In this document: positions 2,908 through 49,159 of the stretch, one piece after another
How the letters are laid out: each line of letters starts with the position of its first letter
How positions within the stretch are numbered: the first letter of the stretch is position 1
Source: Holdemania sp. Marseille-P2844
GTDB taxonomy: Bacteria > Bacillota_I > Bacilli_A > Erysipelotrichales > Erysipelotrichaceae
Assembly: GCF_900120005.1 (NCBI RefSeq)
Contig: NZ_LT635454.1
Location: forward strand, 278,759-342,758
Direction: 5' to 3'
DNA length: 64,000 nucleotides
The notes under the pieces: generated by a model
What the model was told of the DNA's origin: nothing
What the model saw: only the letters and a program-made list of their open reading frames with translations
The model's database searches: none
Made by a program: the position numbers and the translations under genes

Positions 2908-4254
<1,347 letters not shown>

Positions 4255-41574: not shown

Positions 41575-43747
41575 TCCATCCGACTGCAATTATCAGGAGT
41601 GGGTCAATGTCGGCATGGCACTTAAGCATGAGGGCTACACCGCGGCAGATTGGGACGCCTGGTCTGCCCGAGATGGTGGCCGGTATCATGCAGGCGAATG
41701 CTTTAAAAAATGGGCGACATTTGAGGGCACTGGCACGCCTGTAACTGGCGGGACGATTGTGCAGATGGCAAAGGATCGCGGCTGGTCTCCTGCTTTATCC
41801 TCTGATCCGGGCTATAGCTTGGATTGGGATAGCGTGATCCAACAGGACGATGTTGTTATTGTGGACAAAGGATGGGTAGAGGCTCGTGAGATTAAAGAGC
41901 CTGTCAGCTGGGATCCAGTCAAGGAACTCATTACATATCTGGAAACATTGTTTGAATCCGATGAAAATGTCGGATACGTTACGCGAAGTTTTGAGCGAGA
42001 TGGAAAGTATTTACCAACCAAAGGCTGCTGGGATCGTAGTGCAGGACAGCTCATTGATGCGCTGCTCAAATGTAAAGGCGATATTGGAGCCGTGCTTGGT
42101 GATTACAACCCAGAGGTAGGAGCTTGGATTCGATTCAATCCGCTGGATGGCAAAGGTATTAAAAACGATAATGTTACAGATTACCGGTTTGCGCTTGTAG
42201 AGTCCGATAGCACGGACCTCGAAAAGCAAAACGCGATTATCCATGAGTTGGAGCTGCCGGTTGCTTGCCTGGTGTTTTCAGGCAAAAAGAGCGTCCATGC
42301 CATCGTCAGGGTGGACGCTGCTAACTACGATGAGTACCGCAAGCGTGTTGATTATCTTTATGCGGTCTGCAAAAAAAATGGTCTGGAGATAGACCAGCAG
42401 AATAAAAATCCATCCCGGCTGTCCCGGATGCCGGGCGTGATCCGCGCCGGGCGCAAGCAGTTCCTCATGGAAACCAATGTCGGCAAGGGTAGCTGGGACG
42501 AATGGCGGGAATGGATCGAGGCAGTCAACGATGATTTGCCGGATCCGGAACCGCTGGAAGCAGTTTGGGATAACTTGCCTGCGCTGGCTGCACCGTTGAT
42601 TGACGGCGTCCTGCGTCAGGGGCATAAGATGTTGCTTGCCGGACCTTCAAAAGCCGGTAAGAGTTTTTCGCTCATTGAGCTGTGTATCGCGATCGCTGAG
42701 GGCTCTTCCTGGTTCGGGTGGCCATGCACTCGTGGGCGTGTTTTATATGTCAATCTGGAGCTCGATCGAGCCAGCTGCTTACACCGTTTCAAAGACGTTT
42801 ACCAAGCGCTAGGGATTAAGCCGGAGCACCTCCAGAACATTGATATCTGGAATCTGCGAGGCCGCTCAGTGCCGATGGACAAGCTGGCTCCTAAGTTGAT
42901 CCGAAGGGCAGCTAAAAAGGACTATATCGCCATTGTGATTGATCCAATTTACAAAGTCATTACAGGCGACGAAAATAGTGCCGACCAGATGGCCAACTTC
43001 TGCAATCAGTTTGACAAGGTGTGTACGGAGCTGGGAGTCGCGGTAATCTACTGCCATCACCATAGCAAGGGCAGCCAAGGTAACAAGCGCAGCATGGACC
43101 GTGCGTCCGGATCCGGAGTCTTTGCCCGGGATCCTGATGCTCTTCTGGATCTGATCGAGCTAGACCTGCCGGAGAGCCTGCAGAAGCAGCAGGACGATCA
43201 GATGGTCTGCCAGGTATGCAAAGACTACCTGCAGCGTGCCGGGCAGCTGTACAAAATATCCCAGGACGATCAGTGCAGCGCGTCACGGATGACGCAGACT
43301 TGCAGAGAGACGTTTGACGATCGGGAGTATCAACGGTTGTGTGATGACATTCTCGCAGCCAGGACGGCAATGCAAGGGCGCACGGCGTGGCGGATCGAGG
43401 GCACGCTCCGGGAGTTCCCCAAGTTCGCTCCAGTCAACCTCTGGTTTGATTATCCCGTGCATCATGTCGACAATATCGGTGTGTTAGCGGACGTAGAACC
43501 GGATGGCGATGTTCCGCTGTGGAAAAAGGCTGCAGAAAAGAGGAAGCCACCTGGAGATAAAAGAAAAGAACGAAAAGAAGCCATTGAAACAGCATACAGT
43601 GCATGCACAATCGACGGTGATGTGACTGTGGAGGCGATGGCTGAATATATGGGAGTGACTGAAAAAACAGTCAGAAATCGAATAAAAGAACACGGTGATT
43701 TTTGGGTTGACGAAGGCAAAGTGGGCAGAAAATCACAGGGAAAATAG
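41540..43747 (+). CDS. Phage primase-helicase (PriCT-2 and RepA-like AAA ATPase)
   Basis: A 735-residue replication protein. The N-terminal PriCT-2-like region (about 1-80: CNYQEWVNVGMALKHEG) is followed by a primase-type segment (about 140-330) with LVFSGKKSVHAIVRVD and SRLSRMPGV, and a RepA/AAA_25 helicase domain with Walker A AGPSKAGKSFS (about 367-377) and VIDPIYKV. The C-terminus carries a helix-turn-helix (VEAMAEYMGVTEKTVRNRI). GGAGG precedes the ATG. The repeat-dense candidate origin starts at its stop codon, a normal place for an initiator's target. Confidence 0.88.
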   Translation: MIDLKAILEYIDPSDCNYQEWVNVGMALKHEGYTAADWDAWSARDGGRYHAGECFKKWATFEGTGTPVTGGTIVQMAKDRGWSPALSSDPGYSLDWDSVIQQDDVVIVDKGWVEAREIKEPVSWDPVKELITYLETLFESDENVGYVTRSFERDGKYLPTKGCWDRSAGQLIDALLKCKGDIGAVLGDYNPEVGAWIRFNPLDGKGIKNDNVTDYRFALVESDSTDLEKQNAIIHELELPVACLVFSGKKSVHAIVRVDAANYDEYRKRVDYLYAVCKKNGLEIDQQNKNPSRLSRMPGVIRAGRKQFLMETNVGKGSWDEWREWIEAVNDDLPDPEPLEAVWDNLPALAAPLIDGVLRQGHKMLLAGPSKAGKSFSLIELCIAIAEGSSWFGWPCTRGRVLYVNLELDRASCLHRFKDVYQALGIKPEHLQNIDIWNLRGRSVPMDKLAPKLIRRAAKKDYIAIVIDPIYKVITGDENSADQMANFCNQFDKVCTELGVAVIYCHHHSKGSQGNKRSMDRASGSGVFARDPDALLDLIELDLPESLQKQQDDQMVCQVCKDYLQRAGQLYKISQDDQCSASRMTQTCRETFDDREYQRLCDDILAARTAMQGRTAWRIEGTLREFPKFAPVNLWFDYPVHHVDNIGVLADVEPDGDVPLWKKAAEKRKPPGDKRKERKEAIETAYSACTIDGDVTVEAMAEYMGVTEKTVRNRIKEHGDFWVDEGKVGRKSQGK

Positions 43748-43960
43748 GGAAAATTTCCCTCAATTTCCCTTTCCCTGAAAATCTTAGGGAAGGAAAAAAA
43801 CATGACAATTTCCTTCCTTTCCCTAAGGGAAAGTAGGGAAAAAAACGAAAATTTCCTTTCCCTAGGGAAGGAAAAAAACATGTTATTTTCTTTCCTTTCC
43901 CGGGAAGGGAAAATCTATATATATAAATATATAAATTTCCGTTTCCCTGACGGTCAAAGG
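43745..43960. other. Candidate phage replication origin: dense TTTCCC/GGGAAA repeats and AT-rich tract
   Basis: About twenty TTTCCC or GGGAAA units lie within 200 bp, forming many dyads such as TTTCCCTAAGGGAAA and TTTCCCGGGAAGGGAAA. A 20-bp direct repeat (TAGGGAAGGAAAAAAACATG) occurs at 43785-43804 and 43863-43882, and a run of TA repeats at 43915-43936 could be an unwinding element. The site follows the primase-helicase gene. Reading frames on the minus strand here are low-complexity artefacts. Confidence 0.65.
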
Positions 43961-48253: not shown

Positions 48254-48277
48254 CTTTTGTGGTACTATACGCGCGTA

Positions 48278-48540
48278 AGATGCCAGAAGGTATCTGAGCC
48301 GATAGTAGCATCCCCACGATACGGGATCGGCGCGAGATCGGTAATTATGGCCAGTGCACACGGATGGACGCATCCTATATGCTGCCAGCGCCAGAGCCTG
48401 TGATGAGATGCCTTTGCGCCGGGCACGGAGTAACGCTGGGCTCCCGAATGGGAGTAAGTCACAGGATTAAATTAAGACTAGCGGTGGATGAATTCTAAGT
48501 GAACCCATCTGCGGAAGCACTCAGCGATGGGTGCTTTTTC
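48278..48540 (+). ncRNA. Candidate structured RNA upstream of the terminase genes
   Basis: About 260 nt without a coding frame but with many stems: AGATGCC/GGTATCT (48278-48295), GCCGAT/ATCGGC (48298-48331) enclosing CCC/GGG, GGATG/CATCC (48362-48375), a 7-bp perfect long-range stem CCTGTGA/TCACAGG (48397-48465) enclosing CTCCC-GAAT-GGGAG (48441-48454), and a closing AGCAC/GTGCT terminator with T-tract (48516-48540) that competes with CCCATC/GATGGG. It may be a regulatory or packaging RNA, or a cos/pac region. Confidence 0.55.
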
Positions 48541-48721
48541 TTTGGTTTCCAGCCTTCCTTCCCCGGCTGGATGAGGCAGGCACCCCATCTTTTCTCCTTT
48601 CTACTTTCTGACCTCCCTTTTACACTTTATACTTTTAGCCTGCAAACTCACGGCCCCGCGTATCGCCTTGCGGGGTTTTAATTTACATTTAACGCATTGA
48701 CATGAATCTGGAGGTGATAGG

Positions 48722-49159
48722 ATGCGCGGAAAATACGAGACACATGTTAAACCTAAGCTGGATCTGATTGCCCAGTGGGCGCGTGATGGCGCGATTGAGC
48801 GAGACATTGCTAAAAAGCTCGGCGTGTCCGAGAGCACGTTCAGTGGGTATAAAAAAGAGCATGAAGAGTTGATGCAGACCCTTACAGTCAACAAAGAGGT
48901 CGCGGATGCCCGAGTCGAGAGCGCGCTGTATAAGAGGGCGATCGGGTTCGAGTACACGGAAACCAGTAAAGAGGATGGCCCCGATGGCGTAAAAACCAAA
49001 ACAATGATCAAGCGGGTAGCACCTGACGTCACCGCGCAGATCTACTGGCTCAATAACCGCCGGCCGGATCGTTGGCGCAACAAGCAGGACATCAGCATTG
49101 AGGGGGCATCCAAAGTGGAGATCATCAATGACATCCCAAAGCATACCGACCCGGATTAA
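48722..49159 (+). CDS. terS: Terminase small subunit
   Basis: Recognises phage DNA for packaging. The 145-residue protein has an N-terminal helix-turn-helix (LIAQWARDGAIERDIAKKLG and VSESTFSGYKKEHEEL), a helical oligomer part and a C-terminal tail with APDVTAQIYWLNNRRPDRWR, a typical phage terS pattern. AGGTGATAGG precedes the ATG. It overlaps the large subunit gene by 32 bases. The structured RNA region lies about 180 bp upstream. Confidence 0.85.
   Translation: MRGKYETHVKPKLDLIAQWARDGAIERDIAKKLGVSESTFSGYKKEHEELMQTLTVNKEVADARVESALYKRAIGFEYTETSKEDGPDGVKTKTMIKRVAPDVTAQIYWLNNRRPDRWRNKQDISIEGASKVEIINDIPKHTDPD

What the first reader, a model, noticed from the sequence alone, without database searches (positions are those of the whole stretch)
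48278..48540. Highly structured candidate RNA directly upstream of the terminase genes
About 260 nt between the late regulator and terS lack coding frames but contain at least six perfect or near-perfect stems, including a 62-nt long-range CCTGTGA/TCACAGG helix, a CTCCC-GAAT-GGGAG tetraloop hairpin, and two mutually exclusive hairpins ahead of a T-tract. This could be a packaging-linked RNA, a late-gene leader that switches a terminator, or a DNA packaging site. It does not match an RNA class that I recognise.
Basis: partly seen in the sequence, partly recalled or inferred. Interest (0 to 1): 0.76.

Follow-up and report, generated by a model that had tools for sequence, protein, structure and literature searches.

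The report
Phage RNA mimicking a toxin-linked RNA
Just upstream of its packaging genes this prophage encodes a small structured RNA whose core is a rearranged (circularly permuted) copy of a previously undescribed RNA that elsewhere always sits beside a predicted RNA-cutting defence protein, so it may be a phage-borne RNA antidote to that defence.

Summary
A candidate promoter (48260-48268) and an intrinsic terminator (48515-48536) delimit an RNA of about 265 nt. Its "long-range helix" and "tetraloop hairpin" form one 69-nt three-way junction (48397-48465). That junction is a circularly permuted relative of an RNA family absent from Rfam and from the papers I could search. I found the family here in Bacillota and Actinomycetota and their phages. 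Its canonical form (about 90 nt) is convergent with, and abuts, a DUF3644 HEPN + REase-like gene (PADLOC candidate PDC-S19) in 77 of 77 testable phage loci; 13 of 24 pairs covary (0/500 shuffles). All 61 non-redundant proteins keep the HEPN RNase motif R[N/D]xxxH. About 55 of 178 loci, including the window, carry the RNA without DUF3644. Several sit in the window's position (late regulator, RNA and tRNAs, terS) or in phage tRNA clusters. Best explanation: the canonical pair is an RNA-antitoxin/HEPN-RNase module, and phage orphan copies, this one included, are RNA decoys carried in the late-operon leader, functionally like pseudo-ToxI or Racr RNAs. Identity is well supported; function is inferred. 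A packaging role is not supported. A leader/terminator role is possible and compatible.

The parts
48260..48268 (+). candidate extended -10 (TGG-TACTAT) of the RNA; predicted start about 48275
   Evidence: sequence; GTGnTA...GCG.GTAA conserved in four related prophage leaders; no consensus -35 in register, and the sigma-70 scan found no promoter
48275..48540 (+). predicted transcript of about 265 nt
   Evidence: promoter and terminator bounds; no transcript data
48278..48295 (+). 5' hairpin AGAUGCC-AGAA-GGUAUCU, part of the shared leader
   Evidence: present in L238, GGTAT retained in all four leaders
48397..48465 (+). circularly permuted three-way-junction domain related to the DUF3644-linked RNA
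48397..48404 (+). P4 5' strand CCUGUGAU (closing stem in the permuted form)
   Evidence: pairs with 48458-48465
48405..48418 (+). conserved strand GAGAUGCCUUUGCG (B-type AGAUGCC, then P2 5' strands CCU and GCG)
   Evidence: 13 nt GAGATGCCTTTGC identical in L261, L264, L375, L385 RNAs
48419..48433 (+). CCGGGCACGGAGUAA: P1 of the family reduced to a 3-bp CCG/CGG capped hairpin; GGAGUAA as in L188
48434..48440 (+). P2 3' strands CGC and GGG
   Evidence: pair with 48416-48418 and 48411-48413; the same pairs covary in the family
48441..48454 (+). P3 hairpin CUCCC-GAAU-GGGAG, the invariant signature of the family
   Evidence: CM R1 hit 48441-48470, 19.2 bits
48458..48465 (+). P4 3' strand GUCACAGG
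48483..48509 (+). hairpin presenting GAAUUCUAAGUGAA; the same loop motif in the paralogous leader L065
48515..48536 (+). intrinsic terminator ending the RNA
   Evidence: conserved in L238, L239, L065
48652..48677 (+). second intrinsic terminator before terS
   Evidence: also in L238
47822..48253 (+). late transcription regulator (sigma-70 region 4-like)
   Evidence: PHROG 36 transcriptional regulator, PHROG 3512 sigma factor; Pfam Sigma70_r4 just under cut-off
48722..49159 (+). terminase small subunit
   Evidence: PHROG 309, 1.8e-47

Best explanation
The region makes a leader-type small RNA of about 265 nt from a promoter just after the late regulator gene and stops it at an intrinsic terminator before terS. 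Inside it lies a compact three-way junction that is a circular permutant of the RNA partner of DUF3644 (HEPN RNase + REase-like) proteins. The canonical RNA and DUF3644 form a two-gene module, most likely an RNA antitoxin holding a HEPN ribonuclease in check. Phages that carry only the RNA use it in trans: the RNA occupies the toxin's RNA-binding site and keeps it off while the phage replicates. Shown: the RNA family, its covarying structure, its universal pairing with DUF3644, the intact HEPN motif, the orphan copies, and the permuted core in the window. Inferred: transcription, binding, neutralisation and protection.
For: Family: 41 non-redundant RNAs, 24 pairs, 13 with both-side changes, 97% of cells paired, 0/500 shuffles; not in Rfam. 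Partner: protein-first search, 77/77 untruncated viral DUF3644 loci have the RNA convergent at the gene's 3' end; motif-first, 118 of 178; Pfam DUF3644 + EC042_2821, PADLOC PDC-S19; R[N/D]xxxH in 61/61; DUF3644 is a HEPN family (PMC3710099); the AlphaFold model's best PDB neighbours are HEPN domains, weakly. Orphans: 55 loci without adjacent DUF3644, none in the whole 112-kb circular genome of Eggerthella phage LE2-3 nor in 14 other phage records, two positive controls ringing; several between late regulator and terS or abutting tRNAs. Window: P3 and P2 of the family plus the B-type GAGAUGCCUUUGC strand, in exact rotated order, closed by an 8-bp P4. The window's one departure from the otherwise invariant U before P3 is a C; most B-type RNAs also have C there, able to pair with the G of AUGCC. 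Precedents: RNA antitoxin of the HEPN toxin AbiF (PMC12373285), phage pseudo-ToxI (PMC3475682), Racr RNAs (PMC10651486).
Against: No transcript, binding or phage-plating data. The window copy scores only 19.2 bits with the family model (E 7.5e-5 over 521 nt, 0.024 over 170 kb) because it is permuted and lacks P1. Searches found no other permutant. The host genome has no DUF3644, so no local target is known. That DUF3644 is toxic and that its RNA is an antitoxin is inference by analogy.
Confidence: 0.55

Rival explanations
1. Late-operon leader: the RNA is mainly a terminated leader like the lambda pR'-6S RNA-tR' segment, and a phage factor (the sigma-like regulator or an antiterminator) lets polymerase through into terS. 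The three-way junction is incidental or helps antitermination.
For: Order regulator, promoter, leader, terminator, second terminator, terS; promoter and terminator conserved in related prophages whose middle part differs; L024 and L026 also show terminator hairpins before terS without the core.
Against: It explains the chassis, not the DUF3644-RNA core; leaders without the core exist, so the core is not needed for late expression. The proposed switching strand ACCCATC is absent in L238.
Confidence: 0.25
2. Relic or sensor: the core descends from a lost DUF3644 module and has no function now, or it acts as a trigger or cofactor for DUF3644 rather than an inhibitor.
For: Some orphans are clearly degraded (L168, L176); no DUF3644 in this genome; whether the RNA inhibits or activates the protein is untested.
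Against: The window copy keeps all P2/P3/P4 pairs and the motif strand; loss of the protein gene alone cannot permute the RNA; phage tRNA-array copies keep the ~50-nt core nearly exactly while flanks diverge.
Confidence: 0.15
3. DNA packaging site or packaging RNA (pac/cos or phi29-like pRNA).
For: Position directly upstream of terS.
Against: The core lies beside DUF3644 genes, often at integrase ends, in over 100 loci; a prophage with near-identical terS lacks it; no pRNA family match.
Confidence: 0.03

Closest known systems
AbiF (Abi_2 HEPN toxin) with abiF-motif RNA antitoxin, e.g. RCd22 of C. difficile (PMC12373285; Rfam RF03085)
   Same: Prophage-borne HEPN protein paired with a structured non-coding RNA that neutralises it in trans by direct binding
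   Different: Other HEPN family; RNA unrelated by Rfam; here the RNA is convergent with the gene, not upstream and co-transcribed; neutralisation not shown here
pseudo-ToxI of phage PhiTE (PMC3475682)
   Same: Phage-encoded RNA resembling a defence system's RNA antitoxin
   Different: ToxI is a repeat-array pseudoknot for ToxN; this is a single three-way junction for a HEPN protein, and permuted
Racr RNA anti-CRISPRs (PMC10651486)
   Same: Solitary copy of a defence RNA in viral genomes; the RNA decoy logic
   Different: Mimics CRISPR repeats and targets Cas proteins
DUF3800 RNA motifs (Rfam, e.g. RF02967 DUF3800-VII, RF02969 DUF3800-I)
   Same: Structured RNA named for a neighbouring protein family of unknown function; a DUF3800-VII copy lies in the same phage as one orphan (L109)
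   Different: No match of the present RNA to any of these models
GOLLD and ROOL phage RNAs (PMC12286853)
   Same: Phage RNAs of unknown role near tRNA islands
   Different: Far larger; no Rfam match here
lambda 6S RNA / tR' late leader (own knowledge)
   Same: Short terminated transcript between late regulator and late genes
   Different: No Q-type regulator identified; carries an unrelated RNA core

Membership tests
DUF3644-linked RNA family (defined here) | P3 UCCC-GAAU-GGGA and P2 GC/GC + GGG/CCU | tested here: met
DUF3644-linked RNA family (defined here) | conserved strand AGAAUUCC (A-type) or AGAUGCC (B-type) followed by UUUGC | tested here: met
   B-type, 13/13 nt, but upstream instead of downstream
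DUF3644-linked RNA family (defined here) | canonical order with closing stem P1 | tested here: not met
   order rotated; P1 reduced to a 3-bp hairpin
DUF3644-linked RNA family (defined here) | convergent DUF3644 gene adjacent | tested here: not met
   none in the window's phage or genome
Type III toxin-antitoxin | toxin is an endoribonuclease | tested here: inconclusive
   HEPN motif intact in 61/61 linked proteins; activity untested
Type III toxin-antitoxin | antitoxin RNA binds and inhibits the toxin protein | not testable with these tools
   needs a bench assay
Type III toxin-antitoxin | antitoxin gene upstream of and co-transcribed with the toxin, repeat array | tested here: not met
   canonical RNA is single-copy and convergent with DUF3644
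abiF, DUF3800, GOLLD, ROOL, phi29 pRNA (Rfam) | match to the family's covariance model | tested here: not met
   no hit in the region at E<=1; canonical RNAs also unmatched
lambda-type late leader with antitermination | promoter and intrinsic terminator between late regulator and late genes | tested here: met
   at consensus level only; the promoter is by eye and by conservation
lambda-type late leader with antitermination | antitermination factor acting at the leader | not testable with these tools
   regulator resembles a sigma region 4 activator

The most novel reading that the evidence does not exclude
A phage uses a circularly permuted copy of a defence module's RNA antitoxin, embedded in its late leader transcript, to disarm DUF3644 HEPN ribonucleases. 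It is one of a wider class of solitary antitoxin-like RNAs that phages carry among their tRNAs and late leaders.
Probability: 0.45. Interest if true: 0.86.

Novelty: new variant of a known kind. Interest (0 to 1): 0.76.

Why it matters
It points to an apparently undescribed RNA family obligatorily paired with an uncharacterised HEPN defence candidate (DUF3644 / PDC-S19) in prophages, satellite phages and bacterial genomes, and gives that candidate a concrete mechanism to test (RNA-controlled HEPN RNase). The solitary copies in phage tRNA arrays and late leaders suggest RNA-based counter-defence beyond CRISPR (Racr) and ToxIN. A natural circular permutant would show that the junction, not the strand order, is what the protein recognises.

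Tried and rejected
Coding gene: only small unsupported ORFs. Known RNA: Rfam at gathering and permissive thresholds. Homologues by DNA similarity in 60 relatives: only the own genome's leaders share the 5' end; the other hits looked like chance. Rhodobacter phage hit H6: chance match inside a coding gene. Comparison of terS-upstream regions of terS relatives: short leaders or genes instead. First fit of the core to the family downstream (GAATTC 48490, CCC 48504, GCG 48511 as P2/P4 partners) was dropped when the permuted fit explained the upstream strand exactly. Search for other permutants: 23 of 24 B-type and 2 of 2 A-type pattern hits are coding or chance; the remaining one is the window's own phage. 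GAGATGCCTTTGC in 296 genomes of the class: of 20 places read, one more real B-type RNA (L385), the rest coding or chance. The AAA-ATPase gene beside L261/L262 is not accepted as a partner, because B-type RNA L375 sits beside a DUF3644 gene and L264/L385 beside apparent DUF3644 C-termini (by eye). Papers on DUF3644 or PDC-S19 RNAs: none beyond the HEPN survey; Weinberg 2017 is not held.

Full report
OBSERVATION. The whole 263-nt region is only modestly more stable than shuffles (z -1.78), but the sub-domain 48396-48467 is clearly stable (z -2.63). There is no convincing ORF and no Rfam match even at E<=1. The RNA is bounded by a candidate extended -10 box TGG-TACTAT (48260-48268; the sigma-70 consensus scan itself found no promoter) and an intrinsic terminator (48515-48536). 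A second terminator (48652-48677) follows before terS.

A SHARED LEADER WITH VARIABLE CONTENT. Three related prophage leaders, two in the same genome (L065 and the L064/L239 type) and one elsewhere (L238), share the promoter region, the start GCGxGTAA..ATGC and the terminator, but their middles differ: almost nothing in L239, an unrelated 100 nt in L238, another structure in L065. So the locus is a leader between the late regulator and terS into which different RNA content is placed.

A NEW RNA FAMILY. A DNA search with the region hit only 40 nt in Streptococcus, satellite and Listeria phages, each time beside a ~330-aa gene. That gene is Pfam DUF3644 + EC042_2821, PADLOC candidate PDC-S19, a HEPN family in the survey of Anantharaman et al. 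(PMC3710099). Pattern scans of viral and genome contigs gave well over 150 loci across Bacillota and Actinomycetota. The RNA is about 90 nt: closing stem P1 that doubles as terminator in most loci, a P2 helix, invariant hairpin P3 UCCC-GAAU-GGGA, variable hairpin P4, and an invariant AGAAUUC strand. Across 41 non-redundant members 97% of cells are paired, 13 of 24 pairs show changes on both sides, and none of 500 shuffles or slid structures comes near. It matches no Rfam family.

OBLIGATORY PARTNER. Starting from the protein, 80 viral DUF3644 loci were fetched. In 77 the RNA lies on the opposite strand at the gene's 3' end. By the lengths listed, the other three loci end at or within a few bases of the gene, so they cannot be tested. 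All 61 non-redundant linked proteins keep R[N/D]xxxH. An AlphaFold model (pLDDT 82) has HEPN toxins of HEPN-MNT systems and the sacsin HEPN domain as nearest PDB neighbours, though with weak E-values. A second subtype of the RNA carries AGAUGCC in place of AGAAUUCC. One such locus (L375) abuts a divergent DUF3644 gene (Pfam 2.3e-40); two more (L264, L385) appear to abut C-terminal ends of the same clade, judged by eye.

ORPHANS. Of 178 motif loci, 118 have DUF3644 convergent and adjacent, 5 are cut off, and 55 (window included) lack it. Two of the 55 have DUF3644-like sequence further away, and a few may be relics. A recurrent orphan position is late regulator, RNA, terS, often directly abutting phage tRNAs (L118, L253, L113, L123 with both genes found; L079, L124/L141 with the regulator; L110 with the terminase). 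In the Eggerthella phage LE2-3 the core lies in the tRNA cluster, and neither that complete genome nor 14 other phage records encode DUF3644, while two positive controls rang. In several of these copies P1 is lost while the ~50-nt core is kept almost letter for letter. Others retain full P1 and lie at integrase ends next to other defence-type genes (Abi_2 in L101, SIR2 in L080/L180).

THE WINDOW COPY IS CIRCULARLY PERMUTED. Reading 48397-48465 as CCUGUGAU-GAGAUG-CCU-UU-GCG-[CCGGGCACGGAGUAA]-CGC-U-GGG-CUCCC-GAAU-GGGAG-UAA-GUCACAGG, every element of the family is present but rotated: the strand that normally follows P4 comes first, P4 becomes the closing stem, and P1 is reduced to a 3-bp capped hairpin. 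The strand GAGAUGCCUUUGC is identical over 13 nt to B-type RNAs (expected by chance 4e-6 in the region). The one base that departs from the invariant P3 context, C for U at 48441, is also C in most B-type RNAs, where it can pair with the G of AUGCC. Because of the rotation the family model scores it only 19.2 bits. I therefore describe it as a permuted relative, not an ordinary member.

MECHANISM. Best-supported reading: DUF3644 is a HEPN RNase held in check by its RNA, as AbiF is by RCd22 (PMC12373285). Phages carrying only the RNA would supply a decoy, as PhiTE does with pseudo-ToxI (PMC3475682) and others do with Racrs (PMC10651486). Shown here: structure, partner, motif, orphan distribution, permuted core. 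Inferred: transcription, binding, inhibition, benefit to the phage. The late-leader role is compatible and probably explains when the RNA is made. Packaging is not supported.

LIMITS.

Noticed in passing
L238:3225-3825: A related prophage carries an AbrB-like/MazF-like gene pair (by sequence, not scanned) between the leader RNA and terS, so this interval seems to be an insertion hotspot for accessory genes.
   Followed up: no
window 48483-48509 and L065 ~3165-3200: Two otherwise different leaders share a hairpin presenting GAAUUCUAAG[U/C]GAA; function unknown, possibly a second RNA module.
   Followed up: partly
window 48296-48396: The 5' half of the leader folds into further stems with no relatives found outside this phage lineage.
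   Followed up: partly
L109:1719-1808 (-): A DUF3800-VII RNA (Rfam RF02967) lies about 600 nt from the orphan RNA in the same phage contig, which has no DUF3800 or DUF3644 gene: perhaps a collection of orphan defence RNAs.
   Followed up: partly
L113, L123, L079, L253 just upstream of the RNA core: The core directly abuts an unusual phage tRNA with an anticodon ARAGORN reads as four bases (cccc), with another tRNA-like sequence after it.
   Followed up: no
L261 and L262: RNAs of the B subtype end within about 5 nt of a convergent 432-aa AAA-ATPase gene instead of DUF3644.
   Followed up: partly
L260, L263, L265: A third subtype with GCAUUCC in place of AGAAUUCC; no partner protein identified.
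   Followed up: no
L101 and L180: Full-length copies of the RNA convergent with an Abi_2 gene and a SIR2-domain gene respectively.
   Followed up: partly
window 43732-43944 (-): Three unrelated Rfam sRNA models match the same stretch below their gathering scores (best E 0.007, rliI); possibly a structured region, possibly chance.
   Followed up: no
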